Positions 4,966 through 29,730 of a stretch of 64,000 bases of DNA are shown piece by piece; the first letter of the stretch is position 1; each line of letters begins with the position of its first letter. Source of the DNA: Rhodocyclales bacterium (GTDB taxonomy: Bacteria; Pseudomonadota; Gammaproteobacteria; Burkholderiales; Rhodocyclaceae); the NCBI GenBank assembly GCA_016183655.1, contig JACPEH010000017.1, forward strand, positions 1 through 64,000. The letters run 5' to 3'. Made by a program: the position numbers and the translations under genes. The notes under the pieces are model-generated. The model saw only the letters and a program-made list of their open reading frames with translations, had not been told where the DNA came from and made no database searches.

Positions 4966-6447
4966 ATGCCCTTGACTCCTGCTCCGCGCCACTGGCGCGT
5001 CGTTCTCATCCAGCCGCCGGCTTACGAGCACTCGGGTGCGCTTGCCGAGCTTGCTGAAACCCTTCTCTACGGCCTCCACGGCTTGGGCATGGAAGTCGAC
5101 CTGGCGCTCAACGAATGCTCGCCGACCGGCGGCAACATCGTCCTTGGCGCCCATCTGCTCGACGAGCGCGAGATGGCAGCCCTGCCGGGCGATGCCGTCA
5201 TCTACAACTCGGAGCAGATCGACGAAGGTTCGACCTGGATCGGCAGGCCATACGTCGAGCTGTTGCGTTCACGCCCGGTCTGGGATTACAGCCGACAGAA
5301 CCTGGAACGACTGAGATTTCTGGGCGTTGCCGGCGGCACATTCGTGCCCGTCGGCTACGTCCCGCAGCTAACACGCATACCGCGGGAGGAGGAGGACATC
5401 GACGTCCTCTTCTACGGTTGCATCAACGAGCGTCGGAAGAAAATACTGGAGGGCCTGATCGAACGCGGGCTGCGCATCGAATTCCTCTCCGGCGTCTACC
5501 GCGAGCCGCGCGACCACCTCATCGCCCGCGCCAAGGTTGTGCTCAACCTTCACTACTACGACGCCAACGTCTTCGAGATCGTCCGCGTCTCCTATTTGCT
5601 GGCAAACGAGAAGGCCGTCGTCGCCGAATGCGGGGATACGACCGACATCGACGAGGACATGCGCGACGCGGTCCGCGGCGTTCCCTACGAACAACTGGTC
5701 GATGCCTGCGTCGAACTGGTGGACGATGCAAAACAGCGCGCCAACCTGGCACGGCGCGGCTTCGAGGCCTTTGCCCGGCGCAGCGAGCGGGATATCCTCG
5801 CGCAGACGCTCGGCATCGCCGATGCAGTGTCGCCGACGCATACGCCGGCGCTGCTCAACCTCGGCAGTGGCAAGGACTGGCGCGACAACTGCCTCAATGT
5901 CGACATCAGCGAAGTCTTCCGCCCCGATGCGCTGCTCGACATCGGCCGCCCGATTCCGGCCGGCGCAGCACTGGACACGATCCGTTTCGGCCGCATCGAT
6001 CTGCGGTCGGAGATGTTCGACGCCATCTTCGCCAACGACGTGCTCGAGCACATCCCTGACCTGGTCACGGCGATGGGCAACTGCCTGACGCTGCTGAAAG
6101 CCGGCGGCACCTTCCACATCGTCGTCCCTTACGACCTGTCGCTCGGTGCCTGGCAGGATCCGACCCACCTGCGCGCCTTCAACGAGAACAGCTGGCTCTA
6201 CTACACTGATTGGTACTGGTATCTCGGCTGGGCCGAGGCGCGCTTCGACCGGCTGTCGACAGAGTTCGCGCTCAGTCCGCTTGGTCAGTCGCTGCAGCAG
6301 GCCGGAAAACCGCTCGAAGAAATCCTGCGCACGCCGCGTGCCGTCGACTCGATGAGTGTTGTTCTGCGCAAACGCTATCTTCTCGAATCCGAAGCGCAGC
6401 GCGCATCCGTCGCCACTCGCCGCCCCTGGGACGACATTCCGGCATGA
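4966..6447 (+). CDS. Fused GT-B-type glycosyltransferase and SAM-dependent methyltransferase
   Basis: This 493-residue protein has two halves. Residues 1-285 resemble a GT-B glycosyltransferase of the CgeB-like kind, with DVLFYGCINERRKKIL and a nucleotide-sugar-site-like stretch FEIVRVSYLLANEKAVVAE. Residues 293-480 form a class I methyltransferase with motif I LNLGSGKD near residue 300, an acidic NVDIS strand end, and FDAIFANDVLEHIPD. It probably transfers and methylates a sugar during glycan assembly. The ATG at 4966 is preferred because the core fold starts immediately after it (HWRVVLIQPPAYE). It is the first gene of a tightly spaced operon and overlaps the next gene by ATGA. Substrates are unknown. 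Confidence 0.75.
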   Translation: MPLTPAPRHWRVVLIQPPAYEHSGALAELAETLLYGLHGLGMEVDLALNECSPTGGNIVLGAHLLDEREMAALPGDAVIYNSEQIDEGSTWIGRPYVELLRSRPVWDYSRQNLERLRFLGVAGGTFVPVGYVPQLTRIPREEEDIDVLFYGCINERRKKILEGLIERGLRIEFLSGVYREPRDHLIARAKVVLNLHYYDANVFEIVRVSYLLANEKAVVAECGDTTDIDEDMRDAVRGVPYEQLVDACVELVDDAKQRANLARRGFEAFARRSERDILAQTLGIADAVSPTHTPALLNLGSGKDWRDNCLNVDISEVFRPDALLDIGRPIPAGAALDTIRFGRIDLRSEMFDAIFANDVLEHIPDLVTAMGNCLTLLKAGGTFHIVVPYDLSLGAWQDPTHLRAFNENSWLYYTDWYWYLGWAEARFDRLSTEFALSPLGQSLQQAGKPLEEILRTPRAVDSMSVVLRKRYLLESEAQRASVATRRPWDDIPA

Positions 6448-7799
6448 ACGTCGCCGACGACCTCGCCGCCGAGTTCTACCACGAGGCCGATCTGCGGCTG
6501 GCGCAGGCGGTTCCCGGGCAGGCGCTGACCGTGCTCGATGCCGATTGCCGCCGCGGCCATCTGGGCGAGGTACTGAAGCATTTACAGCCGGCGCGGACCA
6601 TCGTCGGCCTCTGCGCCGACGCAGGCGATGCCGGCGATGCCGGCCGGCGGCTCGACCGGGTGATCCGCTGCGATATCGCCACCGCAACGCCGGAGCTGCC
6701 ACAGGCCTCGTTCGACTGCATCATCCTTGGTGATGCGCTGGCCGGCTTGCACGACCCGCTCGCCGTGCTGACGGCATTGCGGTCGCTGCTCAAGCCGGAC
6801 GGCCGACTGGTCGCCGCGGTTCACAACAGCCAGCACTGGCGAGACCTCGACGCCCTGCTCTGCGGCGACCTGCAGGCAGCCAACGCGAGCGGCAGGCCGC
6901 CGGTGCGCAGCATGGGCTTCGCCAACATCGTCAAGCTCCTGCTCGACGCCGGCTTCCTGCCGTGCATCAAGGACCGGCGACTGCAACCGCCGCCGCAGGA
7001 TTGGCTGGAAGCCGCCACGCCGCTAGCGGCGCGGCTCAGGCTGGACGGCGCGTCGTTCGCAGCGCGCGTCGCTGCCCGCCGGTTCTTCATCGAGGCCACC
7101 CCGATCGGCGACCTGCCGCCCGATGCCGAGGACTGCCCGCCGACAACCATCGGCGTCTGCACCAACGACGCCGTCGTCCTCGCCGACAACCTACTCGCCT
7201 CGCCCGCTCTGGCCGGCGACAAACATCAGGTGCTGCGCGTCGAGGGTGCGACCAGTGCGGCGGAAGGGCTCAACGCCGTGATCGAAAATGCCAGCCACGA
7301 ACTGGTGGTGCTGGCGCACCAGGACGTCTACCTGCCGCGCTGGTGGATCGCCCGCCTGTGGCAGCAATATGCGCTGGCGCGCACTGCTTGCGGCGGCGAG
7401 ATCGGCATCCTCGGCGTCTACGGTGTGCTCGGCAGCGAACGCGGCATCACTCGCTTCGGCCGCGTGGCCGACCGCGAATTCCTGCTCGACGAGGCGACAC
7501 CGCTGCCGGCCCGGGTAAGCAGCCTCGACGAACTGCTGCTGGTCGTACCGCGGTGCTCGCCGGTGCGTTTCGACCCCGCACTGGGCTTCCATCTGTACGG
7601 AACCGACGCCTGCCTGGTCGCCGAACGGCATGGCCTGCCGGCCGTCGTCGTCGATGTACCCTGCTTCCACAATTCGAAACAGGGCGGCGCACTGCCCGAA
7701 GCCTATCGCGGTAGCAGCCAGGCAATTGCCGGGAAATGGCCGGAACGCCTTCCGCTGGCGACGCCTTGCGGCGTCATTCGCCCGAGCGGGACAAGTTGA
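6444..7799 (+). CDS. Fused methyltransferase-like and StrF-type glycosyltransferase-like protein
   Basis: The 451-residue product combines a class I methyltransferase-like N-terminus (about 20-135) with a C-terminal glycosyltransferase-like domain of the Glyco_tranf_2_5/StrF kind (about 230-440). The second domain is marked by VVLAHQDVYLPRWW and an acidic LYGTDACLV segment. The methyltransferase motif I is degraded (LDADCRRGHLG instead of a G-x-G-x-G core), although FDCIILGDAL and LLKPDGRLVAAVHN match later motifs. That half may be inactive or bind a different ligand. A short GDAGDAG duplication occurs within it. Domain order is the reverse of the preceding gene, with which it overlaps by 4 bp. 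Confidence 0.65.
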   Translation: MNVADDLAAEFYHEADLRLAQAVPGQALTVLDADCRRGHLGEVLKHLQPARTIVGLCADAGDAGDAGRRLDRVIRCDIATATPELPQASFDCIILGDALAGLHDPLAVLTALRSLLKPDGRLVAAVHNSQHWRDLDALLCGDLQAANASGRPPVRSMGFANIVKLLLDAGFLPCIKDRRLQPPPQDWLEAATPLAARLRLDGASFAARVAARRFFIEATPIGDLPPDAEDCPPTTIGVCTNDAVVLADNLLASPALAGDKHQVLRVEGATSAAEGLNAVIENASHELVVLAHQDVYLPRWWIARLWQQYALARTACGGEIGILGVYGVLGSERGITRFGRVADREFLLDEATPLPARVSSLDELLLVVPRCSPVRFDPALGFHLYGTDACLVAERHGLPAVVVDVPCFHNSKQGGALPEAYRGSSQAIAGKWPERLPLATPCGVIRPSGTS

Positions 7800-7809
7800 C
7801 GGAGACACC

Positions 7810-8940
7810 ATGTCAGAAAAACCGAACACACCGGTCTATGTCACCCGCCCGTACCTACCGCCGCTCGAAGAGTTCATCCCATACCTCGAACAGATGTGGG
7901 CCACCCGGCAACTAACCAATGGCGGCCCCTTTCATGACCAGTTCGAACGAGCCCTCGAAGTTTATCTCGGGGTCAAGCACGTTTCCCTGTTCGCCAACGG
8001 CACCCTGGCACTGCTGACGGCCCTGAAAGCCCTGCACGTCTCCGGCGAGGTGATCACGACGCCGTACAGTTTCGTCGCTACGGCGCATTCCCTGCTGTGG
8101 AACGACATCACCCCAGTGTTCGTCGATATCGACCGGCAAACGATGGGCATCGCGCCGGAAAAGATAGAGGCGGCGATCACCGAACGCACGACGGCAATCC
8201 TTCCGGTCCATGTATACGGCTATCCGTGCGATGTCCGGAAAATCCGTGCCATTGCCGACCGGCACGACCTGCGCGTCATTTTTGATGCCGCCCATGCCTT
8301 CGGCGTCCGTGATGAAGGCGGCAGCCTGCTCCGCCATGGCAACCTGTCGGTCGTCAGTTTCCACGCGACGAAGGTTTTCACGACTTTCGAAGGTGGCGCA
8401 ATAATCAGTCCTAATGCAGAGATAAAGCGACGGATAGACAGCCTTAAGAATTTCGGCTTCCTGAACGAAATATCCGTAACCGAACTCGGAATCAATGGAA
8501 AAATGAACGAAGTCCAGGCGGCCATGGGGCTTGTGCAGCTGAAGCATATTGATGCTGCAATTGAACAGCGGCGCGCCGCCGACCAGACCTACCGGCGTCT
8601 TCTGGCCGGCGTGCGAGGCGTGCATTGCCCGGTGCCGCCGGCCGGCATCCGCCACCACAACTATTCGTACTTCCCGATCCTGATCGGCAGGGAGTACAGC
8701 ATCTCGCGCGACCAGCTATTTAACGAACTGCGTCAGCACAACATTTTCGCGCGGCGCTATTTCTACCCGCTGATCAGCAACTTCCGCATGTACAAGTCGG
8801 CAGACGACAGGAAGGAGCGCTTCCCCGTCGCCGCAGACGTTGCCTCGCGCGTGCTGTGTCTGCCGATTTTCCCGGGAATCGACGAGGCCACGCTGGCACT
8901 GATCAGCGAATTGATCGCCAAGCACGGCGGCACGTCATGA
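7810..8940 (+). CDS. DegT/DnrJ/EryC1/StrS-family PLP aminotransferase (VioA-like)
   Basis: A 376-residue sugar aminotransferase. It contains FANGTLALLTAL (phosphate-binding region), the cofactor-pairing aspartate in FDAAHAFG, and the PLP-binding lysine at residue 188 in SFHATKVFTTFEGG. Family members aminate keto-sugars, for example dTDP-4-keto-6-deoxyglucose to viosamine, using glutamate. Length and motif spacing are normal and no key residue is missing. GGAGA precedes the ATG. It starts a five-gene cassette (aminotransferase, acyltransferase, acyl ligase, oxidoreductase, ACP) that resembles the flagellin-glycan genes of Pseudomonas. Bases about 8395-8565 are visibly AT-richer, with ATA and AAT codons unusual in this region. 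Confidence 0.9.
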   Translation: MSEKPNTPVYVTRPYLPPLEEFIPYLEQMWATRQLTNGGPFHDQFERALEVYLGVKHVSLFANGTLALLTALKALHVSGEVITTPYSFVATAHSLLWNDITPVFVDIDRQTMGIAPEKIEAAITERTTAILPVHVYGYPCDVRKIRAIADRHDLRVIFDAAHAFGVRDEGGSLLRHGNLSVVSFHATKVFTTFEGGAIISPNAEIKRRIDSLKNFGFLNEISVTELGINGKMNEVQAAMGLVQLKHIDAAIEQRRAADQTYRRLLAGVRGVHCPVPPAGIRHHNYSYFPILIGREYSISRDQLFNELRQHNIFARRYFYPLISNFRMYKSADDRKERFPVAADVASRVLCLPIFPGIDEATLALISELIAKHGGTS

Positions 8941-9617
8941 GCATCCGAAAACTCGTCATCTACGGCAACGGGCAGATGGCGCGAATGTTCCTCGACTTCG
9001 CGCGGCAGCAGTTCGAAGTCGCTGGCTTTACCGTCGATCGCTCCGCCCTGGCCGCAGCCGAAATCGACGGCCTGCCGGTTGTGCCGTTCGAGCAGGTCGA
9101 GACCGTCTTTCCGCCAGCCGAACACCTGATGATCACCGCGGTCGGCTATCTCGACATGAACGAACTGCGCGCCCGGAAATTCGAGGAGGGGCGCGCCAAG
9201 GGCTACCGCTTCACGAACTTTGTGCACGCATCGGTCATCCGCCATCCGAGCGTCGCGATGGGAGTCAACAACGTGATCCTCGACCATCTCGCCATCCACC
9301 CCGGCACCCGGCTCGGCAACAGCAACTTCATCAGTAGCAACGTATCGATCGGCCACGGCTGCGCGATCGGCGACAACTGCTGGGTCAATTCCGGCGTTTC
9401 GATCGGCGGCGAGGCATGGATCGGCGACAGCTGCTTTTTCGGCATGAACGCGACGATCGGCGACAACATCAAAATCGGCGCGCGCTGCTATATCGGCGCG
9501 AATACGCTGGTCTCACGCAGCACGGCGGAGGCGGAAGTGTATATTTCGGCGAACGGCGAACGTTTCCCTCTCCCCAGCGCCGATTTCCTGAAGTTCATCG
9601 CCCGCAAACAACCGTAG
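8937..9617 (+). CDS. Hexapeptide-repeat sugar acyltransferase (PglD/NeuD-like)
   Basis: The 226-residue protein begins with a Rossmann-like sugar-nucleotide-binding part (LVIYGNGQMARMFLDFA, residues 5-21). It continues into a left-handed beta-helix of hexapeptide repeats (about 95-205), including HPGTRLGNSNFISSNVSIGH and CAIGDNCWVNSGVSIGG. PglD/NeuD-type enzymes N- or O-acylate amino sugars using acyl-CoA, with a histidine base such as the one in SIGHGC. It directly follows the aminotransferase with an ATGA overlap, so N-acylation of the newly formed amino group is the natural inference. A neighbouring ACP suggests the donor could be acyl-ACP. Confidence 0.85.
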   Translation: MSIRKLVIYGNGQMARMFLDFARQQFEVAGFTVDRSALAAAEIDGLPVVPFEQVETVFPPAEHLMITAVGYLDMNELRARKFEEGRAKGYRFTNFVHASVIRHPSVAMGVNNVILDHLAIHPGTRLGNSNFISSNVSIGHGCAIGDNCWVNSGVSIGGEAWIGDSCFFGMNATIGDNIKIGARCYIGANTLVSRSTAEAEVYISANGERFPLPSADFLKFIARKQP

Positions 9618-9629
9618 CCCATACCGAGC

Positions 9630-11168
9630 ATGCCGACCGCCGCCACCCCGTCACCGATCGACGCCAGATTCCGCAAGGCCGCCGCACAATCTCCACAGAA
9701 GACAGCGCTGTTCATCGACGGCCGCCGTTTCAGCTACGCCGAACTGGCGCGTGACGTCGATGCGCTGAGCCGCGGCCTCGCTGCCGCTGGTCTCGCCGCC
9801 GGCGAACACGTCGGCCTCGTCCTGCCCAACTGCGCCCCGTTCGTCGTCGTCCTACTCGCCGCGGCCCGCCTCGGGCTGGTGCTTGTGCCGCAGAGTCCCG
9901 GCCTGAGCGCCGAGGCCATCGATAGCACCTTCGATGCCGCCGATGTCCGCCATTTGATTGCCTGGCACGGCCTTGCCGGCCAAATCGACGGCGGACGCCG
10001 CACGGGTGCGAAGATCGTCGTCGGCGCCACCGCCGACGGCTGGACCGCCTACAGCGCATTGCTCGACGGGCCTGCACGTGATGCCACCACGGCGCCGTCG
10101 CTGCCAGCCGAGCATCCGTACCTGTTAATCCTGACCTCCGGCTCGACAGGGCAACCGAAGCCGATCATCCTCAGCCAGACAACCAAGGTGCTGCGGGCTG
10201 AGGCCGCCGGGCGGCTCTACGGCGTCACGACCAGCGACGTTACGCTTGCCGCGACGCCGCTCTATCATTCGCTGGCCCAGCGGCTGGTATTGATGCCGCT
10301 GCTGACGGGCGGCACCAGTGTCGTCCTCGGCCATTTCACGCCGACCACCTGGATCGACGCCGTACACCGGCACGGCGTGACCTTCTCGATCGCAGTCTCG
10401 TCGCAGCTGAAGGCCATCCTGACGCAGACCGACCGACTCACCGACCAGCTGCGCTCGCTGCGCTGCCTCGTCTCTTCGTCAGCACTGCTCGACGACGAGG
10501 CCAAGGCCAAGCTGATCGGCCTGCTCGACTGCGACTTCCACGAATGCTATGGCGCTTCTGAAATCGCCATTGCCACCAACCTCTCGCCAGCCGCTGCGCG
10601 GCAAAAACTCGGATCCGTCGGCCGGGCGATCCCCGGCGTGGACGTCGCGATCCTCGGCGAGGACGGTCGACTGGCGCCGACGGGCAGCCCCGGCGAGATC
10701 ATCTGCCGCACGCCGATGCGCTACAGCGGCTACTACCGGCAGCCGGAGACAACAGCCGCAGCGCAATGGCACGACCATTTCCGGACCGGCGACCTGGGCC
10801 GGATGGATGCCGACGGTTTCCTCTACTTTCTCGGCCGCATCAAGGACATCATCATCACCGGCGGCGTCAACGTCTATCCGAAGGATATCGAGGACGTCAT
10901 CCTGAGCCACCCGGCAGTCGAGGAGTGCGCCGCGATTCCGCTGGCCGACGACGGCCTCGGAGAAGTCGTCGGCGTCGTCGTCGCCTTCAAGAATAGCGAA
11001 CAACCGCCCGCGCTGCGTGACCTTCAGCGCCTGTGCATGCAGCACCTCGGCGACTACCAACAACCGCGCCGTTTCATCACCCTGCCTATACTGCCGAAGA
11101 ACGCCATGGGCAAGCTCGACAAGCTGGCGCTGCGCAACACCTATTCTTCGCCCCGTCAGCCGGAATAA
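9630..11168 (+). CDS. AMP-forming acyl-CoA/acyl-ACP ligase
   Basis: A 512-residue member of the adenylate-forming (ANL) superfamily. The P-loop LILTSGSTGQPKP (about 165-177), the aromatic YGASEIA motif, FRTGDLG, the hinge GRIKDIIITGG and the C-terminal catalytic lysine in PKNAMGKLDK are all present, so the enzyme should be active. Such enzymes activate a carboxylic acid with ATP and load it on CoA or on a phosphopantetheine carrier. An acyl carrier protein lies two genes downstream in the same operon, so loading that carrier with an acyl group destined for a sugar is plausible. The acid is unknown. Confidence 0.88.
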   Translation: MPTAATPSPIDARFRKAAAQSPQKTALFIDGRRFSYAELARDVDALSRGLAAAGLAAGEHVGLVLPNCAPFVVVLLAAARLGLVLVPQSPGLSAEAIDSTFDAADVRHLIAWHGLAGQIDGGRRTGAKIVVGATADGWTAYSALLDGPARDATTAPSLPAEHPYLLILTSGSTGQPKPIILSQTTKVLRAEAAGRLYGVTTSDVTLAATPLYHSLAQRLVLMPLLTGGTSVVLGHFTPTTWIDAVHRHGVTFSIAVSSQLKAILTQTDRLTDQLRSLRCLVSSSALLDDEAKAKLIGLLDCDFHECYGASEIAIATNLSPAAARQKLGSVGRAIPGVDVAILGEDGRLAPTGSPGEIICRTPMRYSGYYRQPETTAAAQWHDHFRTGDLGRMDADGFLYFLGRIKDIIITGGVNVYPKDIEDVILSHPAVEECAAIPLADDGLGEVVGVVVAFKNSEQPPALRDLQRLCMQHLGDYQQPRRFITLPILPKNAMGKLDKLALRNTYSSPRQPE

Positions 11169-11174
11169 ACCACC

Positions 11175-12296
11175 ATGCCCCCCTCCACTCCACTTCGTCT
11201 CGGCTTCATCGGCGGCGCGCTGAGTTCGGCCGTCGGCTACACACATTTCAACTCCAGTCGCCTCGACGGACATTTCCGCGTCGATTGCGGCTGTTTCAGC
11301 CGCCACCGCGACAGCAACCAGGCGGCAGCCGCCGCCTACGGAGTCCCCCCCGAGCGCACCCACGCCAGCTGGTCGGAGATGCTCAATCGGGAACGGCAAA
11401 AGATCGACGCCATCGTCGTGCTGACACCAACCCCGGACCATCGCGACATCGTCATCGCCGCGCTCGATGCCGGGATTCCGGTGGTTTGCGAGAAGGCGCT
11501 GGCGCTGTCGAGTGCCGACTGCCGCACCATCGGCGAGGCGGTACGGCGCAACTGCGGGTTCCTGGCGGTAACCTACAATTATTCGGGGTATCCGATGGTC
11601 CGCGAACTGCAGCGGATGATCGCTGCCGGCGAGTTGGGGCGCCTCCACCAGATTCACATAGAGATGCCGCAGGAAGGCTTCCTGCGCACCGCCGCCTCCC
11701 CCCAGGCTTGGCGCCTCCGGGACCAGGAAGTGCCGACGGTGTCACTTGACCTCGGCGTCCACGTGCATCATCTAGTGCACTTCCTGACCGGCGGAAAAAA
11801 ACCGCTCGAAGCGGTCGGCGACCAGAGTTCCTACGGACACTTCAGAAACATCGTCGACAACGTCTACTACCTCGCCCGTTACGAAGACGACTTGCGCGTT
11901 CAGACTTGGTACGGAAAAACTGCGCTTGGCTACCGCAACGGCCTGCGCATCCGGGTTTTCGGCAGTCTCGCCAGCGCCGAGTGGTTCCAGATGGAACCGG
12001 AGGAACTGCTACTGTGCGACGCCGACGGCCGGCGCCAATTGCTCGACCGCGGCACCGGCGACGCCAGCGTTGCCCGGCTGCCGCGCTACAACCGATTCAA
12101 GGCCGGCCACCCGTCCGGCTTCATCGAAGCCTTCGCCAACCTCTACGCCGACATTGCCGAGCATCTGCGCCACCATCAGACCGGAGCGCCGATGCCGAAC
12201 CAGCTAGTCTACGGCGCCAACCAGTCGGAAGAAGGACTACGCCTGCTCGAAGCCGTTGCCCGCTCGTCCGCCGAAAAATCCTGGCAATCGGTATGA
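11175..12296 (+). CDS. Gfo/Idh/MocA-family oxidoreductase
   Basis: This 373-residue protein starts with a Rossmann fold (LGFIGGALSSAVG, residues 8-20) and has VLTPTPDHRDIVIAALDAG followed by EKAL, corresponding to the conserved EKP of the family with Pro replaced by Ala. The C-terminal half has the expected alpha/beta substrate domain, including DLGVHVHHLVHFLTG with histidines typical of the active site. Members oxidise or reduce sugars and inositols with NAD(P). In P. aeruginosa-like flagellin glycan islands a related dehydrogenase accompanies the VioA-type aminotransferase. Stop and next start overlap (ATGA). Confidence 0.85.
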   Translation: MPPSTPLRLGFIGGALSSAVGYTHFNSSRLDGHFRVDCGCFSRHRDSNQAAAAAYGVPPERTHASWSEMLNRERQKIDAIVVLTPTPDHRDIVIAALDAGIPVVCEKALALSSADCRTIGEAVRRNCGFLAVTYNYSGYPMVRELQRMIAAGELGRLHQIHIEMPQEGFLRTAASPQAWRLRDQEVPTVSLDLGVHVHHLVHFLTGGKKPLEAVGDQSSYGHFRNIVDNVYYLARYEDDLRVQTWYGKTALGYRNGLRIRVFGSLASAEWFQMEPEELLLCDADGRRQLLDRGTGDASVARLPRYNRFKAGHPSGFIEAFANLYADIAEHLRHHQTGAPMPNQLVYGANQSEEGLRLLEAVARSSAEKSWQSV

Positions 12297-12577: not shown

Positions 12578-12583
12578 ATTGCT

Positions 12584-14935: not shown

Positions 14936-16027
14936 ATGACCGCCGACCGACTACTGATCTTCCCCCTTGACCTGGACGAAGCCGAACCGGTGATCCGCGT
15001 CGCAACCGCGCTCGGCATCAAGGTCATCGGTGCCAGTTCAGCGATGGCCGCCCCCGGCGGGCGAGCCGTCCAAGATTTCGTCCGCCTGCCCTTCGTAACC
15101 GACCCGGGTTTCGACGACGCCCTTCGCTGCACAATCAATGACCATGGCATCACGGTCGTGTTCGCTCCCCATCAAGGTGTCTGGCGGCACCTCGACACCT
15201 TGCTGTCGCAAGATTCTTGGCGCGGGCGCTTCCGGCTGTGCCAGCCCGAACCGTTCATCGCCACCTGGCAGCTATTTGCTGCCCATGAGGAATGGGCTTC
15301 GATCGCGCGGGACGATCTTTCCGCCCGACGCATCGGCAGCGACAAGCTCCGTCCGTCGCTGGTCCCGGCCAGCTATGCCGCGCTGCATCGCCAGTTCCTC
15401 GGCACCCCCGGCCAATGCGACGAAATGAAGCTCCTCGCGCTATGCGACATCGCCCGGCTGCTCCCCGACGGCGACATGCTCGAGGTCGGCTGCCTCTACG
15501 GACGCTCGTCGCTAGCCCTCGGCTTTCTCGCCAGCCGCCACGGCATCGGCAGCCTGATCTGCGTCGACCCCTGGAACGTCGACAAGGTGACCGACCAGGG
15601 CAGCCAAGCTGCGCTGCTCAACGCCGGCCAGCCGCACATCGACTACGAGCAGATTTTCGTCATCTTCCTGTCGACAGTCGCCATGCTCGAAAACGTCGGC
15701 TACATCCGCGCCACCTCCGCCGCCGCGCACGCCACCTACGTCGCCGCCTTGCAGGCCGGTCGGCTGGACAGCCCCGGCCTCGGCAGCATCGTCCTTTCCC
15801 GGCAATTGAGCCTAGTGCATATCGACGGCAACCACCGCTACGACCATGTGAGGCAAGATGTCGCATTATGGAGTCCGCATCTCGCCCGCGGCGGCTGGCT
15901 GTTGCTCGACGACTACGTCTGGGCCTTCGGCGACGGTCCGCAGCAGGTCGGCGACGAGTTGCTGGGCAGCCCGAACTACGACATCGCCTTCGTCAGCGGC
16001 GACACGCTTTTCCTGCGCCGCGCATAG
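14936..16027 (+). CDS. Class I SAM methyltransferase with PreATP-grasp-like N-terminus
   Basis: The 363-residue protein has two parts. Residues 1-120 look like a nucleotide-fold PreATP-grasp domain (LLIFPLDLDEAEPVIRVATALG, VVFAPHQGVW) as in carboxylate-amine ligases, but no ATP-grasp catalytic domain follows. Residues about 160-360 are a Methyltransf_24-type methyltransferase with motif I LEVGCLYGRSSLALGF, LICVDPWN, LVHIDGNHRYDHV and GGWLLLDDY. That family often O-methylates sugars or aminoglycoside-type substrates and uses a metal bound by Asp/His residues like those in HIDGNH. It is 12 bp downstream of the radical SAM fusion. The substrate is not predictable. Confidence 0.72.
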   Translation: MTADRLLIFPLDLDEAEPVIRVATALGIKVIGASSAMAAPGGRAVQDFVRLPFVTDPGFDDALRCTINDHGITVVFAPHQGVWRHLDTLLSQDSWRGRFRLCQPEPFIATWQLFAAHEEWASIARDDLSARRIGSDKLRPSLVPASYAALHRQFLGTPGQCDEMKLLALCDIARLLPDGDMLEVGCLYGRSSLALGFLASRHGIGSLICVDPWNVDKVTDQGSQAALLNAGQPHIDYEQIFVIFLSTVAMLENVGYIRATSAAAHATYVAALQAGRLDSPGLGSIVLSRQLSLVHIDGNHRYDHVRQDVALWSPHLARGGWLLLDDYVWAFGDGPQQVGDELLGSPNYDIAFVSGDTLFLRRA

Positions 16028-22935: not shown

Positions 22936-25311
22936 TCAACAAGCGATTCCGTGCAGACGGCCAACGTCGAGCAGCAACGCTTCCAGCTTCCCCGCGAAGG
23001 CACGGCCGTCGAACATGTCCGATTCGCCGCGCAGAACGGCGGCCCGGCGCTGCAACCCGCGTAACGCTTCACGGTCGCGGCCCAGGCGGACGACGGTGGC
23101 GACGTAGTCTGCCTCGCTGCGCACGATCAATTCGTCGAGCCCGGCCACCGCCAGCAGGCTCCCCGCCACGCGCGCCGCAAAGGCCTCACCCTGCAGCGTG
23201 ACCACCGGCACCCCGGCCCACAGCGCATCCGAAGTCGTCGTATGGCCGTTGCACGGGAAGGTGTCGAGCGCCAGATCGGCCAGCGGCAGGCGCGCCAGAT
23301 GCTCGGGCTGCGGCCGGCCCTCGGCAAAGACCAGCCGCCCCGGCGCAATTCCAGCCGCAGTGGCCGCCGCCCGCAAGGCGTCCTCTGCCCAGGGATTCGA
23401 CGCCCACAGCCAGAGCACGGCATCGGGAAGCTGGCGCAGGATTTCCAGCCAGCAGGAGAACATAGCAGGCGTGACCTTGTAGGTCTGGTTGAACGAGCAG
23501 AGGACCAGCGCCGTCTCCGGCAACCCCTCGTCGCCCCGCAACGGCCGCGCAGTACAGATGCGTTCGCGGCAATTCGGCTGATAGCTGCCCGGTAGATGCA
23601 GCAAGTGCTCGCTGAACATCGACTGGTTCGACAGCGGAGCGACGACAGCATCGGCGATCAGGTAGTCGATCCAGGGCGCGCCCATGGTGCCTGGATAGCC
23701 GAGCCAATTGATCTGCACCGGCGCCAGGCGGCAGCTGAGCCATTCGCTGTGATTGCCTTCGGTGTATCCCTTCAGATCGATCAGCATATCGAGTTCGAGA
23801 GCCGCGATCCGCGCCACCGCCTCCTCCTGCACGCATGCCGCGAGATCGATGAAATGCTCGACGCCGACGGCGATTCGCGCCCGCATCGCGCTGCCGTCAT
23901 CGACGCCATACGACAGCCCGAACACTTCGAAGCGTGAACGATCGTGCGCCTCAAGCATCTCCGCCAGCAGATAGGCCGTGGCATGGTTCTTGAAATCGGA
24001 GGACAGGTAACCGACCCGCAGACGGCGCCCCCCCCGCTCCGGGCGGACGCCCGCCGGCAGCGGCGGCAAGGCCAGGCGCCGGCTATGATTCTCGGCGCAC
24101 TGCCGTTGCAGGGAGGGCGTCGTTCCGGGCATCGACAGTACGATGAACGGCGGGATATCGTCGCCGTCACCGGCCACCGCCCGAGCGACGGCTGCTGCCA
24201 GTTGGTCCAGGCCCTGCCAGCGGCACAGATGCATGCGTTGGAACAGCAGATGCGCGGCCATCAACCCGTTATCCGGCGCCAGCGCGCAGGCGCGGCCAAG
24301 CGCCACTTCCGCGTCGAGCCGGCGCCCTTCGTCGATCAGCAGCATGCCAAGGTTGAAATGTGCCGGCGCGAATTCCGGGGCGACCTCGATGGCATGCCTA
24401 TACAGCGTGCGCGCCTCCTCGTTCCGCTTCAAGGCGGCATACTGATTGGCGAGATTGGTGAGAATCGCCGGCGCATCCGGGTCAATCCGCAGCGCGGCCT
24501 CATAGGCCGCACACGCGGCCTCGCCTTGCCCCAGGGCCGCGTGGGCGACGCCGCGCTGGAAATGGATCGCGGCGTTCGTCGGCTCGATCCGCAAGGCCTC
24601 GTCCAGCTGCTCAAACGCGGCATCGCACAGCCCGGCATCGAACAACGCCTGCGCCAGGCGGCTGCGCAGCGCGGCGTCGCCCGGCGCCAGCGTCGCCGCC
24701 TGCACGAGGCTGTTCAGCGCCGCCGCGTGGTCGCCTTGCATCGTCTTGGCATCGCATTGCAGCAGCCAGCCGGCGGTGCTGTCCGGCGACAACTGCAGAT
24801 GCCGTTCTGCCGCTGCCATCGCTTCCGTGGCATTTCCGCTGCGCAACGACAGTCGCCCGATTTCCAGCCAAGCGCCACTGTCCTGCGGCTGGCTCCGGGC
24901 ACGTTCCCGCCAGACGGCGAGAGCGGCCTCCAAACGCCCTGCCGCCTCCAGCGCCGCAGCATGCCCGAAACGGGCCTCCGGCTCGTCGTACAGTGCGCGT
25001 GCGCGTTCGAACGCCGTACAGGCGTCATCGAAGCGTCCCTGGTTGTATAGCTGAATCGCCAGTCCACGCCAGTAATTCGCCGCCGACGGATTGGCCGCGA
25101 TCGCCTGGCGCATCAACGACTCCCCCTGTACCCGCTGGCCCGTCTCGTAGAGCAGCTGCCCGAGCAGAAAGGTGGCATCGGGCTGCCCCGGCGCCAGACG
25201 CAACCCCTGCTCGTAACAGGTCTTTGCCGCCTCCAGGCGCCCGTGCCGTTGATGTTCCAGACCGGTGGCGAACAGCCGGCCGGCTTCGGCAGCCTTCATC
25301 CGGCCGTTCAC
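22936..25311 (-). CDS. TPR O-GlcNAc-transferase-like protein (GT41, SPINDLY type)
   Basis: A 791-residue protein. Residues 1-380 consist of about ten TPR units (e.g. ACYEQGLRLAPGQPDATFLL, HFNLGMLLIDEGRRLDAEVA). Residues about 427-785 match the Glyco_transf_41 catalytic domain: LRVGYLSSDFKNHATAYLL with the conserved histidine, LIDLKGYT, INWLGYPGTMG, CSFNQTYKVTP and GHTTTSDALWAGVPVVT. Eukaryotic OGT and SPY modify Ser/Thr of proteins; bacterial relatives can glycosylate flagellin or adhesins. The GTG at 25311 is preferred because GGAG lies 8 nt upstream and the start overlaps the preceding stop (GTGA); an ATG at 25299 is the alternative. A direct flagellin O-glycosyltransferase role is inferred. 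Confidence 0.85.
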   Translation of the reverse strand: MNGRMKAAEAGRLFATGLEHQRHGRLEAAKTCYEQGLRLAPGQPDATFLLGQLLYETGQRVQGESLMRQAIAANPSAANYWRGLAIQLYNQGRFDDACTAFERARALYDEPEARFGHAAALEAAGRLEAALAVWRERARSQPQDSGAWLEIGRLSLRSGNATEAMAAAERHLQLSPDSTAGWLLQCDAKTMQGDHAAALNSLVQAATLAPGDAALRSRLAQALFDAGLCDAAFEQLDEALRIEPTNAAIHFQRGVAHAALGQGEAACAAYEAALRIDPDAPAILTNLANQYAALKRNEEARTLYRHAIEVAPEFAPAHFNLGMLLIDEGRRLDAEVALGRACALAPDNGLMAAHLLFQRMHLCRWQGLDQLAAAVARAVAGDGDDIPPFIVLSMPGTTPSLQRQCAENHSRRLALPPLPAGVRPERGGRRLRVGYLSSDFKNHATAYLLAEMLEAHDRSRFEVFGLSYGVDDGSAMRARIAVGVEHFIDLAACVQEEAVARIAALELDMLIDLKGYTEGNHSEWLSCRLAPVQINWLGYPGTMGAPWIDYLIADAVVAPLSNQSMFSEHLLHLPGSYQPNCRERICTARPLRGDEGLPETALVLCSFNQTYKVTPAMFSCWLEILRQLPDAVLWLWASNPWAEDALRAAATAAGIAPGRLVFAEGRPQPEHLARLPLADLALDTFPCNGHTTTSDALWAGVPVVTLQGEAFAARVAGSLLAVAGLDELIVRSEADYVATVVRLGRDREALRGLQRRAAVLRGESDMFDGRAFAGKLEALLLDVGRLHGIAC

Positions 25312-27023
25312 GCCTGGCGCTCCGCAACCCAGGCGCCCAGCGCACCGGCGACCTCGTGCAGCACCCCCTCCCATTGCCGGGGATTTTGCTGGCGGAAGAT
25401 GCGCATCGACCGGTACCACGGGGAATCGCTGCGTTCGAGCAGCCAGCGCCATTCGCTCTCGGCGCGGTTGAGCAGCCACACCGGCCGGTCGAGCGCGCCG
25501 GCGAGATGGGCGGCGGCGGTATCGACGGAAATCACCAGGTCAAGGACGCACATCAGCGCCGCAGTGTCATCGAAGTCCGCCAGTTCGGCGCTCCAGTCGG
25601 CGACCCGGTTCCGTTCGAGAATCTCGCGTTGCCGCTCGTCGAGCGCCTCCTTGTTGAGGCTGACCCATGCCACATCGGCCGCCCCGAAGAGCGGTTCGAG
25701 CAGCTCCGGCGCCAACTCGAAGCTGCGCTTGTGCAGGCCGCGCTTGCCGGTCGCCCAGGCGATGCCGACTTTCAACCGGCGCTCGCCGGCCAGGCACTGC
25801 CGCCAGCGCCCGATCCGTCCCGGATCAGGCATCAGGTAGGGAAAATCGGCCGGAATCGTTTCCAGGCGCGTGTCGAATGCCAGCGGCAGACTGAGCAGCG
25901 GGCAGTGGTGGGTGTAGCCTCGTTCGTCGGGCATCTCGGCAACCACTTCGGCATACTGCGCAAAGCTGCGCCGGAACAGCGACAGCAAGGGCTTGCGCGT
26001 ATGCAGCAGGATCTTTGAAAAGCGCTTGGCAACCAGCGGCACGTAGCGCGCGAACTGGATGCCGTCGCCAAACCCTTGCTCGGCATAGATCACCAAGCCG
26101 CTGCCAGCCTCGTTGACCGGCTGCCCGGACCAGCGCGGCAGCGCCGAGGTCGGCATCTTGACCGCCCCGTCGCGTTCCTTTGAGTGCCAGCGGTATTCGT
26201 ATTCGCGCCAGCCGTCGCGGAAGCGCCCGCTGATCAGGTAGGTACAGGCAAGGCAGAAATGTGCATCGGCGTCCTCCGGATCGCGTGCCAGCAGCTGGCG
26301 GAAGATCGCCTCGGCCTCATCCTGACGGCCGAGCAGGCTGCACAGCATCGCCTTGTTACGCAGCAGTGCCGGTTCGCCGGGTGAGAGCGCCAGCGCCCGC
26401 TCGAACAACCGCATCGCCTGCTCGTAATCGCCCAGGCGCTTGCAAACGATACCGAGGCCGTTGAGTGCCTCGACGTCGTCGGGGGCAATGGCCAGCGCCG
26501 TCTCGAAACTGCGCGTGGCGTCGGCCTCCCAACCGGCATCGGCGAAGGCCTCGGCCATGCCGACATAGGCGCGGACATGGTGCGGATCGATCTTCAGCAG
26601 GCGTTCGTAGCAACCGAGTGCGCCTGCAACATCCCCCTGTTGCAGGCAGGCCGCCGCCAGTTCGTCAAGCGTCTCGACGACCTCACCGCCGACCGCCAAG
26701 GCCTTGGCGAAATAGTCGCGCGCGGCCGCAACATCGCCGAGACGAAGCTTGACCAGCCCGAGGTTGTGGAACAACTCGCGCGACGGCGGAGCGATCGCCA
26801 GCGCCGTCTCGTAACATGTTTCGGCCTCGCGATAACGCCCTTCGTGCTGGAACAGGTAGCCGAGCAGGCAGCGCAATTCGTAGGCCTCAGGAACCTTTTC
26901 CAGATACGCGGCCAGTAGACCTCTCGCCTCCGCCGGTCGCCCCTCGGCCAGACAGGCGCGCGCGGCGCGCTCGACCTCGCGCGGGCCGCACCCGTCCCCC
27001 CCGTTGTCAGCCTGAACGGCCAT
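25308..27023 (-). CDS. TPR protein with GT9-like glycosyltransferase domain
   Basis: The 571-residue protein has about seven N-terminal TPR units (1-270) and a C-terminal GT-B, GT9/heptosyltransferase-like domain (about 305-560). The latter is marked by VIYAEQGFGDGIQFARYVP, VGIAWATG, LVISVDTAAAHLAGALDRPVW and RSDSPWYRSMRIFRQ. Proteins of this architecture are common in betaproteobacterial flagellar glycosylation regions, and the TPRs may bind flagellin or a chaperone. It is a paralogue of the next gene upstream and overlaps the GT41-type gene by 4 bp. GGAG precedes the ATG. Confidence 0.78.
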   Translation of the reverse strand: MAVQADNGGDGCGPREVERAARACLAEGRPAEARGLLAAYLEKVPEAYELRCLLGYLFQHEGRYREAETCYETALAIAPPSRELFHNLGLVKLRLGDVAAARDYFAKALAVGGEVVETLDELAAACLQQGDVAGALGCYERLLKIDPHHVRAYVGMAEAFADAGWEADATRSFETALAIAPDDVEALNGLGIVCKRLGDYEQAMRLFERALALSPGEPALLRNKAMLCSLLGRQDEAEAIFRQLLARDPEDADAHFCLACTYLISGRFRDGWREYEYRWHSKERDGAVKMPTSALPRWSGQPVNEAGSGLVIYAEQGFGDGIQFARYVPLVAKRFSKILLHTRKPLLSLFRRSFAQYAEVVAEMPDERGYTHHCPLLSLPLAFDTRLETIPADFPYLMPDPGRIGRWRQCLAGERRLKVGIAWATGKRGLHKRSFELAPELLEPLFGAADVAWVSLNKEALDERQREILERNRVADWSAELADFDDTAALMCVLDLVISVDTAAAHLAGALDRPVWLLNRAESEWRWLLERSDSPWYRSMRIFRQQNPRQWEGVLHEVAGALGAWVAERQA

Positions 27024-27102
27024 TGCTCCTTGCCCCTCGTTCGGTCGCTTGCGGCAAGGCGCTACGACAGTTTCGGAAACCGGGCCACACTTCCGCCACC
27101 GC

Positions 27103-29730
27103 TCAGTAGCGCCGCTTGTGGACCCGCCAGACGATCCGCGTCTGTTCGACGACGTTGTTGAAATCGTCGATCGCCTGCATCACCTCCGTCTCGCTCATCC
27201 GCCCCGAATTCAATGCCTCCCGCCAGCGCGGCATCAGATCGTGAACGACCGATTCGACCTCGAAGTCGACGCCGAGAATGTCTCCAAGCGGGGTATTGGC
27301 GGCACCGACCGCGGCCCACTCCCGGTTCAGCCGCCGATTGAAGAGATTCAGCATGCCGCCGGTGATCGGCCGAACATGCGTCGGATCGCCGATAAAAAAA
27401 TCGCTGCGCGGATGAGGCACGGCGATGTCGATGCGCGCACCATCGCTGCAGACGCGCCACAGCTCCCTGACGATGGCGAGAAAGGCGTCCGGGCTCTGGC
27501 CGAGGTGTTCGAGCACATGCGTGAGCTTGACTTCGTTAACCGAGTCGTCGCCCCACGGCCATGGCGTCTGTTCGAGGTTCACCACCAGATCCGGGGCGCA
27601 GGCGGCGACGCAGTCGACGTTGACAAAGCCGGCCTCCTTGCGGTTGCCGCAGCCGAGATTCAGCTTGAGCTTGCGGCCAGCCTCGACAACGTCCGGAAGC
27701 GCAGCGACTGCCGGCCGTTCCGCAGCTGGCGCCGTTCCGTCGCACCAGGCCCGGAGCGCCTCCGCGGCAGCGGCGACGACCGGCGACCATTGGCCGAAAC
27801 TGCTCTGGCGGAAAATGCGCATGGCCGGATACCAAGGGCTGTCGCTGCGGTCTAGCAACCACCGCCAGTCGGTGTCGAAGCGATCGAGCAGCCATACCGG
27901 CACACCCATCGCCCCCGCGAGGTGCGGCACCGAGGTATCCACGCTGACGACCAGGTCGAGGTTGGCGATGAGCGCTGCAGTATCGGCAAAATCCTCGACG
28001 TCGCCCATCGGGTCGACGATGCGCGCCTGCCAGCCGGCCTCGGCGATCTCCGCTTCCGCCCGCCCCTTCTGCAAGGACACCCAGCTGACGCCGGCGATGT
28101 CGAACAGCGGCGCCAGCTGGGTCAGGCGCATTGTCCGGAAACGGTGATAGACGTAGGTTTCGCCGCTGGCCCAGACGATGCCCACCTTCTTCCCGGGAAG
28201 CTTGCCGAGACGGGCCGCCCAGCGCTCGACGAGCTCCCGGTCGGGCACGATATAGGGAATCTGCGCCGGAATGCTTTCCAGGGTGGTGCCCATGCGGCCG
28301 GGTAGCGACAGCAGCGCCGCGTGACAGTCGATCGACAATGTGTCGAGCTGCACCGTCGGCGGCAGGATCTCGACCCCCCAGCGCGCGGCACAATTTGCGA
28401 ACAGGCGGAACAGCGGCGTGACGCTCCAGAAAAGGATGCGGGCCTGCGGATGGCGCTCGCGCAACAGCGGCAGATAACGCGCGAACTGCAGATTGTCGCC
28501 CATGCCCTGCTCGGCATAGACGAGTAGGGTACGCCCCGCCAGCGGCTCGCCCAGCCACTCCGGCTGCTTGAATTTCGGCCGCTTCGCGCTGATTTCCGGC
28601 ATCGCCCAGCGACTCTCGTAATGCGGCCACCCCGCCTGAAAATCGCCGCGCAGAAGCAGCAGGATGCCGAGATTGAGATCCGCCTCGCGATATTCCGGCT
28701 GCAGGCGCAAAGCCTGCCGGTAGGCGTGCTCCGCCTCGCCGAGGCGCTGCAGGCGCAAATAGACATTGCCGAGATTGTTCCAGGCCTCATGGGAATCGGG
28801 GTTCAGTTCGAGTGCCTTGCGGAAGCTCTCGACCGCCGCCTCCATCGCTCCCTGCTTGATGCGACAACTGCCCAGATTGGTATATGCGGCATCCAGATTC
28901 GGCGCAATGTCCAGCGCCCGCTGGAAGCACTCGGCGGCTGCCGCTTCGTCGCTCGGCTGCAGAAGCAGCCCGAGATTGTTGTGCGCTTCGGCAAGGTCGG
29001 GGCGCAAGGCGATCGCCTTGCGGTAATACCTCGTCGCCGTCTCGATGTCGCCGCGCGCACGATGGCTGTTGCCGAGGTGGAAACAGGCCATCGCGTCGTC
29101 GGGGTCGATCCGCTCCGCCCGGCAAAGCTCGTCGAAGGCATCCTCCTCGCGGCTGAGATCCTCCAGCGCCAGGCCAAGATTGACATGGACGTCGGCGGTG
29201 CTCAGTCCAAGCGAGATCGCCTTGCGGAATTCGCGGACGGCCAGCTCCGCGTCGCCTGCGGCGCGAGCCAGTTCGCCGCGCAAGGCGCATACGTCGGGGA
29301 GATCGGCCAGCGCGACCGGCAGCCGCCCGAGCGCGCTGCGCGCCTCGTCGATACGCTTCAGCCGCAACAAGGCCAGCGCGTGGTTGAAAACCGCGTCGGC
29401 ATTACCGGCGTCCACCGCCACCGCCAGCCGGTAGCAGGCTTCCGCCTCCGGCCACTTGCCCTTGGCGGCCAACATCACGCCGAGATCGTTGTGGTAGCGG
29501 GATTGTGCTGGATTGATGGCAACCAGGCGGCGGAGGCAGGCAGCCGCCTCCTCGGGCCTGCCGCGGCCATGCAGCACCTGCGCCAGCAGGTAGAGGGAAA
29601 TCTCATTGTCGGGTTCCTGCTGCAGCAGATGCTGGCAAGCAGTTTCGGCGCCGGCCAGATCGCCCCGCTGGAACAGATTGACGGCATCATTGAACGTCTC
29701 TTGCCAACGACCGACAACATCATGATTCAT
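27103..29730 (-). CDS. TPR - GT9-like glycosyltransferase - methyltransferase fusion
   Basis: An 875-residue protein in three parts: about ten TPR units (1-370), a GT9-like domain (about 400-660: LLVYAEQGMGDNLQFARYLP, VGIVWASG, LVVSVDTSVPHLAGAMGVPVW, RSDSPWYPAMRIFRQ), and a C-terminal class I methyltransferase (motif I LNLGCGNRKEAGFVNVDC near residue 690, VKLTHVLEHLGQSPDAF). The middle domain is clearly homologous to the neighbouring 571-residue protein, implying tandem duplication with gain or loss of the methyltransferase. The ATG at 29730 has GGGA 9 nt upstream. An in-frame GTG at 29754 lacks a ribosome site. It is divergent from fliC. Confidence 0.78.
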   Translation of the reverse strand: MNHDVVGRWQETFNDAVNLFQRGDLAGAETACQHLLQQEPDNEISLYLLAQVLHGRGRPEEAAACLRRLVAINPAQSRYHNDLGVMLAAKGKWPEAEACYRLAVAVDAGNADAVFNHALALLRLKRIDEARSALGRLPVALADLPDVCALRGELARAAGDAELAVREFRKAISLGLSTADVHVNLGLALEDLSREEDAFDELCRAERIDPDDAMACFHLGNSHRARGDIETATRYYRKAIALRPDLAEAHNNLGLLLQPSDEAAAAECFQRALDIAPNLDAAYTNLGSCRIKQGAMEAAVESFRKALELNPDSHEAWNNLGNVYLRLQRLGEAEHAYRQALRLQPEYREADLNLGILLLLRGDFQAGWPHYESRWAMPEISAKRPKFKQPEWLGEPLAGRTLLVYAEQGMGDNLQFARYLPLLRERHPQARILFWSVTPLFRLFANCAARWGVEILPPTVQLDTLSIDCHAALLSLPGRMGTTLESIPAQIPYIVPDRELVERWAARLGKLPGKKVGIVWASGETYVYHRFRTMRLTQLAPLFDIAGVSWVSLQKGRAEAEIAEAGWQARIVDPMGDVEDFADTAALIANLDLVVSVDTSVPHLAGAMGVPVWLLDRFDTDWRWLLDRSDSPWYPAMRIFRQSSFGQWSPVVAAAAEALRAWCDGTAPAAERPAVAALPDVVEAGRKLKLNLGCGNRKEAGFVNVDCVAACAPDLVVNLEQTPWPWGDDSVNEVKLTHVLEHLGQSPDAFLAIVRELWRVCSDGARIDIAVPHPRSDFFIGDPTHVRPITGGMLNLFNRRLNREWAAVGAANTPLGDILGVDFEVESVVHDLMPRWREALNSGRMSETEVMQAIDDFNNVVEQTRIVWRVHKRRY

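What the first reader, a model, noticed from the sequence alone, without database searches (positions are those of the whole stretch)
4966..29730. A 25-kb glycosylation island fused to the flagellin locus, probably a new flagellin glycan pathway
Fifteen genes, twelve of them in one plus-strand run with four ATGA overlaps and three in a convergent minus-strand run, lie between a diguanylate cyclase and fliC. At least nine protein products contain a glycosyltransferase or methyltransferase module, most as chimeras. The island combines an amino-sugar/acyl-carrier cassette (known from Pseudomonas-type flagellin islands), radical-SAM chemistry and protein-O-glycosyltransferase-like TPR enzymes. I know of no characterised island with this set. 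Inference: the product is an extended, N-acylated, O-methylated glycan on FliC.
Basis: partly seen in the sequence, partly recalled or inferred. Interest (0 to 1): 0.82.

Follow-up and report, generated by a model that had tools for sequence, protein, structure and literature searches.

The report
Flagellin sugar island with radical enzyme
Beside the flagellin gene of an Azospira-like bacterium lies a 25-kb block of sugar-building genes, likely used to decorate the flagellum, whose core is a rare fusion of a predicted sugar transferase with a predicted radical-chemistry enzyme; the same fusion occurs in distant bacteria next to one or the other of two predicted acid-activating modules, which would make a new kind of sugar cap testable.

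Summary
In detail: fifteen genes lie between a diguanylate cyclase and fliC, inside a flagellar cluster of an Azospira-like MAG, and ten encode glycosyltransferase or methyltransferase domains. As a kind of locus it is a flagellin glycosylation island, a known and very variable class, in a slot whose content differs between congeners. Most parts are expected (DesI/VioA-like aminotransferase, VioB-like acyltransferase, acyl ligase, ACP, TPR-GT proteins). The unusual part is gene 8, a GT2-radical SAM fusion. It is rare (0 of 368 other genomes in a class sample) but recurs in several phyla. In 17 of 21 related loci a Gfo/Idh oxidoreductase is near; 8 have a dedicated ACP plus acyl ligase, 11 an ATP-grasp ligase, 2 neither, none both. 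These modules swapped at least three times on the tree, and two homologues are fused to the ACP. Flagellin lies within 20 kb in 7 of 20 genomes (0.38 expected). I infer that both modules activate a carboxylic acid that caps an amino sugar through an amide, which the radical enzyme and oxidoreductase remodel; that chemistry is untested. Four of 20 host genomes show no flagellin, so the cassette is not flagellum-only.

The parts
2856..4886 (+). GGDEF protein (diguanylate cyclase), left border of the variable slot
   Evidence: PF00990 150 bits; conserved left flank in G006, G001 and G002
4876..6447 (+). g1: methyltransferase domain (C-terminal half); N-terminal half unassigned; start 4876 or 4966
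   Evidence: PF08241 E 7.5e-7
6444..7799 (+). g2: methyltransferase + GT2-like chimera
   Evidence: PF13489 E 1.3e-8; PF13712 E 1.4e-5, 25.4 bits against a cut-off of 27; ATGA overlap with g1
7810..8940 (+). g3: DegT aminotransferase, DesI/VioA-like
   Evidence: PF01041 341.5 bits; best NCBIfam model DesI 279.9 bits, cut-off 650; best PDB sequence 2po3 E 1.6e-59
8937..9617 (+). g4: PglD/NeuD/VioB-like left-handed beta-helix acyltransferase
   Evidence: TIGR03570 152.5 bits, cut-off 160.8; PDB 4ea7 E 4.3e-15
9630..11168 (+). g5: AMP-forming acyl ligase
   Evidence: PF00501 232 bits; nearest PDB sequences are FadD-type acyl-CoA ligases
11175..12296 (+). g6: Gfo/Idh/MocA oxidoreductase, near g8-type genes in 17 of 21 loci
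   Evidence: PF22725, PF01408
12293..12577 (+). g7: small acyl-carrier-like protein with DSIG motif
   Evidence: PF00550 E 0.004, 17.8 bits, cut-off 20.8; NF058660 E 1.3e-6, below its cut-off; homologous ACP fused to g8-type proteins P0019 and P0031
12584..14923 (+). g8: GT2-radical SAM fusion (779 aa), Cys-rich stretch before and Rossmann-like domain after the radical SAM core
   Evidence: PF00535 102.5 bits, PF04055 61 bits; 527 homologues, 120 listed; models with pLDDT 89
14936..16027 (+). g9: MT24 methyltransferase, also near g8-type genes in L043, L044, L051, L052
   Evidence: PF13578 64.6 bits
16111..17916 (+). g10: GT2 + TPR (start uncertain)
   Evidence: PF00535 58 bits
17996..21955 (+). 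g11: very large GT2 protein with TPR; start 17867 or 17996
   Evidence: PF00535 112 bits, 2 stretches; relatives near fliC in L043, L054 and L143
21999..22913 (+). g12: FkbM methyltransferase; absent from G006
   Evidence: PF05050 73 bits
22936..25299 (-). g13: TPR + GT41
   Evidence: PF13844 318 bits
25308..27023 (-). g14: TPR + GT9-like domain, 571 aa, FlmG-like architecture
   Evidence: TPR families; PF01075 25.2 bits, cut-off 22
27103..29730 (-). g15: TPR + GT9-like domain (methyltransferase-like tail seen by eye)
   Evidence: PF01075 22.5 bits, cut-off 22
29920..30711 (+). fliC, flagellin of 263 aa; 19 Ser/Thr in residues 138-190
   Evidence: PF00669 132 bits, PF00700 79 bits
31214..33034 (+). 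fliD and fliS, start of the flagellar genes right of the island
   Evidence: NCBIfam FliD model 276.5 bits (cut-off 387), fliS 108 bits (cut-off 53.75)

Best explanation
This is a flagellin glycosylation island, likely building an O-glycan on FliC that would end in a dTDP-derived 4-amino sugar capped through an amide by a carboxylic acid, and its core gene encodes a predicted GT2-radical SAM fusion protein. Shown: gene content and order, the embedding in a flagellar cluster, the conservation in G006, the recurrence of the GT2-radical SAM gene with Gfo/Idh and with one of two ligase modules, and its excess near flagellin genes. Inferred: (1) RmlB, encoded elsewhere in the genome, and g3 make dTDP-4-amino-4,6-dideoxyglucose; (2) g5 activates a carboxylic acid and loads it on the ACP g7; (3) g4 transfers it to the sugar amine; (4) the radical SAM half of g8, with g6 as redox partner, remodels the acid on the ACP or after capping; (5) the GT2 half of g8 attaches the finished sugar, while g2, g10 and g11 extend and the methyltransferases methylate; (6) the TPR-GT proteins g13-g15 start the glycan on FliC before export. 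In type-B loci elsewhere an ATP-grasp ligase is predicted to do steps 2-3.
For: Island beside fliC in a flagellar cluster, conserved in G006. g8 relatives: Gfo/Idh in 17 of 21 loci, ACP+AMP-ligase in 8, ATP-grasp in 11, no g7-type ACP with ATP-grasp in any; zero overlap has P 2.2e-4 if kinship is ignored. Module labels need 4 changes on the g8 tree, at least 3 forced by well-supported branches, also 4 when the protein-only rows are left out; one clade of ACP-type rows is rejected, p-AU 9.5e-6. Two natural ACP-GT2-radical SAM fusions among 120 homologues. PF00669 match within 20 kb in 7 of 20 genomes, 0.38 expected, P 1.4e-8. RmlB over cut-off elsewhere in the genome. Precedent: C. difficile type-B flagellin ends in an amino sugar with an amide-linked sulfopeptide, and mutants in its ATP-grasp gene keep an unextended glycan (passages of PMC5207245 and PMC5207246).
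Against: No glycan, substrate or activity was measured. Four of 20 host genomes have no flagellin match, and in 9 more the match is on another contig or over 300 kb away. Two of 21 loci have neither module. L056 has an ATP-grasp gene and also another carrier protein with a KAS III gene; L053 and L056 also have AMP-ligase matches. The fold matches of the radical SAM half do not single out a substrate. g3, g4 and g7 are below the curated cut-offs of their best NCBIfam models. PglD is missing in type-A locus L060.
Confidence: 0.5

Rival explanations
1. DesI/DesII-like route: the radical SAM half of g8 acts on the nucleotide sugar itself (deamination, dehydration or oxidation of the g3 product) and Gfo/Idh reduces the keto sugar; the acyl module serves another sugar or another position.
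For: g3 is nearest to the DesI model; DesII and the sugar-acting BlsE are among the fold matches of the radical SAM half; Gfo/Idh enzymes often act on sugars (recalled).
Confidence: 0.2
2. Plain viosamine-type pathway: g3, g4, g5 and g7 make an N-acyl viosamine as in Pseudomonas syringae, and the radical SAM half of g8 has an accessory or lost role.
For: DegT, VioB-like acyltransferase, ACP and methyltransferases match the vio island (PMC3927599 passages); P0061 has lost the radical SAM cysteines.
Against: The cysteine triplet is present in 119 of the 120 listed homologues and GGG[E/D]P in 120; in the genome of P0061 the PglD and AMP-ligase genes also match only in pieces (L049); no KAS III or short-chain reductase Pfam match in the island.
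Confidence: 0.13
3. The island serves another surface glycan (O-antigen or capsule) and lies beside fliC only because the slot tolerates insertions.
For: g8-type genes occur in 4 of 20 genomes without a flagellin match, one beside an ABC transporter gene and GT genes; slot content differs among congeners.
Against: Excess of flagellin neighbours (7 of 20 against 0.38 expected); three TPR-GT genes of FlmG-like architecture next to fliC; other fillings of the same slot are also glycan genes next to flagellins.
Confidence: 0.12
4. The radical SAM domain modifies a peptide, perhaps FliC itself, as RiPP maturases do.
Against: The family occurs in genomes with no flagellin match, and its radical SAM part goes with a GT2 part in all 21 loci (in L064 as two neighbouring frames).
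Confidence: 0.05

Closest known systems
Flagellin glycosylation islands of Enterobacteriaceae and Aeromonas (PMC4875605, PMC7874193)
   Same: Variable gene sets at a flagellin locus with GT2, GT41-methyltransferase proteins, DegT, FkbM, NeuD-type acyltransferase, ACP and acyl ligase genes (passages and section 9)
   Different: The words 'radical' do not occur in the main text of either paper; the window island has the GT2-radical SAM fusion. A Gfo/Idh gene is named in one Aeromonas group.
Viosamine island of Pseudomonas syringae pv. tabaci (PMC3927599)
   Same: DegT (vioA), acyltransferase (vioB), acp, methyltransferase (vioM) and a very large GT (vioT, 1173 aa) (passages)
   Different: Window island has AMP-ligase, Gfo/Idh and GT2-radical SAM genes in place of KAS III (vioS) and reductase (vioR); no sequence comparison with Vio proteins was made
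Clostridium difficile type-B flagellin glycan locus CDR20291_0241-0247 (PMC5207246, PMC5207245)
   Same: DegT-type aminotransferase and a carboxylate-amine ligase beside GT genes next to fliC; product is an amino sugar with an amide-linked unit (passages and section 7)
   Different: There the ligase is ATP-grasp (as in the type-B relatives of this cassette), with an ornithine cyclodeaminase-like and a FemAB-like gene; no radical SAM gene is named
FlmG of Caulobacter (PMC7591256)
   Same: TPR N-terminal part and GT-B C-terminal part (596 aa), as in g13-g15 (passages)
   Different: FlmG transfers pseudaminic acid; no pseudaminic acid gene was identified in the island by the Pfam and NCBIfam scans; sequences not compared
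DesI/DesII of desosamine biosynthesis (recalled; DesII structures 8hzv, 8hzy)
   Same: DesI-like aminotransferase together with a radical SAM protein
   Different: g8 is fused to GT2 and carries a Cys-rich stretch and a C-terminal domain; DesII only among many fold matches

Membership tests
Flagellin glycosylation island | Glycosyltransferase and sugar-biosynthesis genes at a flagellin locus | tested here: met
   15 genes next to fliC
Flagellin glycosylation island | Flagellin carries the glycan made by the genes | not testable with these tools
   needs mass spectrometry of FliC
Flagellin glycosylation island | Variable content between related strains at the same place | tested here: met
   G006 14 of 15 genes; G001 other genes; G002 DGC about 0.1 kb from a flagellin gene
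Viosamine (vio) island | KAS III (vioS) and 3-oxoacyl-ACP reductase (vioR) in the cluster | tested here: not met
   no KAS III or short-chain reductase Pfam match in the 15 island genes
Viosamine (vio) island | DegT aminotransferase, VioB-like acyltransferase and acp | tested here: met
   by family only: g3, g4, g7; not compared with Vio sequences
DesI (TIGR04427) | score over the curated cut-off of the equivalog model | tested here: not met
   279.9 bits against 650, though the best of the listed models
DesII-type radical SAM enzyme | closest structural or sequence relation to DesII | tested here: inconclusive
Radical SAM superfamily | CxxxCxxC triplet and GGE motif in a PF04055 domain | tested here: met
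   g8: PF04055 61 bits; triplet in 119 and GGG[E/D]P in 120 of 120 listed homologues
SPASM/twitch radical SAM enzymes | auxiliary Fe-S cluster domain | tested here: inconclusive
   conserved extra cysteines before the core; NF033640 matches the core only, 50 bits against 170
FlmG-type flagellin O-glycosyltransferase | TPR N-terminal part plus GT-B C-terminal part | tested here: met
   g13 (GT41), g14 and g15 (GT9-like) by Pfam
FlmG-type flagellin O-glycosyltransferase | TPR part binds flagellin; transfer to flagellin shown | not testable with these tools
   needs two-hybrid or reconstitution as in PMC7591256
C. difficile type-B peptidylamido-glycan system | ATP-grasp ligase in the locus | tested here: not met
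   no ATP-grasp Pfam match in the window island; present in 11 of 21 related loci

The most novel reading that the evidence does not exclude
GT2-radical SAM fusions are a new family of glycan-capping enzymes. A carboxylic acid, brought in either by a dedicated ACP with an AMP-ligase or by an ATP-grasp ligase, is joined by an amide to an amino sugar and rebuilt by radical chemistry with a Gfo/Idh partner, and the same polypeptide transfers the capped sugar. Flagella of Azospira, Pseudoalteromonas, Colwellia, Methylophaga and Prodigiosinella would carry such radical-made caps.
Probability: 0.35. Interest if true: 0.8.

Novelty: new variant of a known kind. Interest (0 to 1): 0.6.

Why it matters
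My paper searches found no radical SAM enzyme in flagellin glycosylation (open-licence PMC text only). If the cassette works as inferred, it adds a one-polypeptide radical enzyme plus glycosyltransferase to glycan biology, gives a sequence handle (GT2-radical SAM with Gfo/Idh and a ligase module) for predicting unusual caps on flagella and other surface glycans, and names genomes where a single gene deletion and a flagellin mass spectrum would decide it.
Full report
What was given. The window is bases 1-64000 of contig C23 of a 3.89-Mb, 28-contig genome, 88% complete. The best homologue of gene 8 outside the window's own is from Azospira restricta, 86% identical. G006, a same-genus genome of one contig of 3,975,213 bases, has an 86% copy too, and P0002 lies on a contig of the same length; I take G006 to be A. 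restricta.

Observation. ORF lists, Pfam and NCBIfam scans confirm fifteen genes between a GGDEF protein and fliC, twelve on the plus strand and three convergent on the minus strand. Right of fliC lie fliD and fliS, fliF, fliG, fliI, fliM, fliP, flgL, flgK and flgE, so the island is inside a flagellar cluster. Three ATGA overlaps are real, not four. Ten of fifteen products carry a glycosyltransferase or methyltransferase match.

The slot. G006 has 14 of the 15 genes in the same order, island genes 74-93% and flanking genes 71-98% identical; g12 is missing. In G001 the same IclR-PaaX-GGDEF flank is followed by a DegT match of 30%, a TPR-GT match of 26% and three flagellins. In G002 a GGDEF gene of 81% identity lies about 0.1 kb from a flagellin gene, on a 4.5-kb contig. 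Only 1 of 6 congeners has full-length g8 (two of the six are 65% and 74% complete). The island is thus one of several fillings of a variable slot, as reported for other flagellin islands (PMC4875605: passages and section 9; PMC7874193: passages).

The expected parts. g3 scores best with the DesI model, below its cut-off, and with PDB 2po3, listed as '4-dehydrase'; that 2po3 is DesI is recalled. g4 scores best with the NeuD/PglB/VioB model, just below its cut-off, and with perosamine N-acetyltransferase. g5 is an AMP-forming acyl ligase. g7 is a small protein with weak carrier-protein matches and a DSIG motif. RmlB is encoded on contig C26, over its cut-off; RmlA was not searched. The set recalls the viosamine island of P. 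syringae (PMC3927599: passages), but no KAS III or reductase match is in the island. g13-g15 have TPR repeats and a GT41 or GT9-like domain, an architecture like that of FlmG (PMC7591256: passages).

Distribution. In a sample of 369 genomes of the class, only the window's own had g8 at E 1e-60. In the species-level genome collection 178 stretches encoded a relative and 79 distinct loci were kept, of which I use the 21 that match both the GT2 and the radical SAM part (L043-L062 and L064; in L064 as two neighbouring frames). By record titles they are Proteobacteria including a SAR11-type and several alphaproteobacteria, Campylobacterota, Acidobacteria, Verrucomicrobia, Planctomycetes, Poribacteria, Saganbacteria and Prochlorococcus. 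The other 58 kept loci were dropped as radical-SAM-only, GT2-only or low-identity matches; L063 has the two parts as separate genes.

Neighbours. Within the DNA fetched (up to 10 kb each side, less at contig ends) tblastn at E 1e-3 finds g6-type Gfo/Idh in 17 of 21 loci (not L053, L057, L059, L064), DegT in 16 of 21, g7-type ACP with AMP-ligase in 8 (L043-L046, L049, L051, L057, L060; PglD in 7 of these, not L060), ATP-grasp in 11 (L047, L048, L050, L052-L056, L058, L061, L062), and neither module in L059 and L064. No locus has both g7-type ACP and ATP-grasp; P 2.2e-4 if kinship is ignored. Exceptions: AMP-ligase matches also occur in type-B loci L053 (8 kb off) and L056 (22% identity), and L056 has another carrier protein with a KAS III gene. 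The ATP-grasp genes were first seen by Pfam in some loci and then used as tblastn queries for the rest. The ATP-grasp profile is nearest to 4dim (named phosphoribosylglycinamide synthetase), with an L-amino acid ligase among the next hits. On the g8 tree the labels need four changes, at least three forced by well-supported branches, and four also when the rows known only as proteins are left out; one clade for the ACP type is rejected. The tree has 24 rows: 20 loci, the window, P0002, P0019 and P0031; P0002 is labelled from G006 and the last two from their fused ACP. I read this as repeated exchange of two carboxylate-activating modules around a constant GT2-radical SAM core.

Physical link of ACP and g8. 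P0019 (856 aa) and P0031 (890 aa) begin with a g7-like ACP bearing DSLG or DSMG and go on into GT2-radical SAM; they are 2 of the 120 listed homologues. In Siccirubricoccus phaeus (L049, contig of P0061) the triplet is lost and PglD and AMP-ligase match only in pieces, which looks like joint decay of the cassette; n is 1.

Link with flagella. Of 20 genomes searched (L048 was not held), 16 have a PF00669 match. In 7 of 20 one lies within 20 kb of the fusion gene: the CTSoil Proteobacteria MAG, Candidatus Accumulibacter aalborgensis, Prodigiosinella confusarubida, Colwellia echini, Methylophaga, Pseudoalteromonas luteoviolacea and P. flavipulchra. Chance would give 0.38; P 1.4e-8. Both module types are among them. 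The 4 genomes without a match are the Verrucomicrobia, Saganbacteria, Prochlorococcus and Pelagibacter ones, some of them partial, so the gene also serves other roles; in L046 it lies beside an ABC transporter gene and GT genes.

Precedent for the inferred product. C. difficile type-B flagellin ends in Fuc3N acylated at its amino group with a unit of taurine, alanine and glycine (PMC5207245: passages, some of them from its abstract). Mutants in its ATP-grasp gene, its ornithine cyclodeaminase-like gene and GT3 carry glycans not extended beyond the trisaccharide (PMC5207246: passages and section 7). Shewanella SO_3265 (sfmE), an ATP-grasp_4 protein, also affects flagellin mass (PMC3765264: passages). 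This supports 'ligase plus DegT beside flagellin means an amide cap', not the radical step.

Literature on the fusion. Searches for radical SAM with flagellin glycosylation terms and with glycosyltransferase-domain terms gave no relevant paper in their listings. The library is open-licence PMC text only.

Verdict. A flagellin glycosylation island is the likely identity (about 0.85, my estimate). The amide cap with radical remodelling is inferred; I give the whole scheme 0.5 and the bold form of the radical step 0.35. Novelty lies in the cassette, not in the island as a kind.

Noticed in passing
L128 (G002), 1-2547: A GGDEF gene 81% identical to the window's left border lies about 0.1 kb from a flagellin gene: an almost empty form of the slot.
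   Followed up: partly
L140 9399-13932 and L142 8552-13059: DegT, ATP-grasp, FkbM and g6-type Gfo/Idh genes together, with GT2 and sulfotransferase genes nearby but no GT2-radical SAM fusion.
   Followed up: partly
L063 1021-11215 (Roseibium aquae): GT2 and radical SAM parts as separate genes in one cluster with Gfo/Idh and AMP-ligase matches; the radical SAM stretch contains a stop in the matched frame.
   Followed up: no
L049 7319-12283 (Siccirubricoccus phaeus): Radical SAM cysteines lost while PglD and AMP-ligase match only in pieces, as if the cassette decays as a unit.
   Followed up: partly
L143 2050-16973 and L052 (Prodigiosinella confusarubida): fliC followed by two very large GT genes (1261 and 1175 codons), DegT, MT24, ATP-grasp, Gfo/Idh and GT2-radical SAM in one direction: a named type-B island next to flagellin.
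   Followed up: partly
L056 2779-17489 (Helicobacter sp. 11S02596-1): GT2-radical SAM gene with KAS III, another ACP, formyltransferase, a SPASM radical SAM gene, FkbM and ATP-grasp: both kinds of acyl supply in one locus.
   Followed up: no
window 1002-2956: IclR- and PaaX-type regulator genes left of the GGDEF gene, conserved in G006 and G001.
   Followed up: no
window 33407-35810: Open frames right of fliS (33407-34579 +, 34545-35810 -) without an NCBIfam match; the first is kept in several relatives at 34-59%.
   Followed up: no
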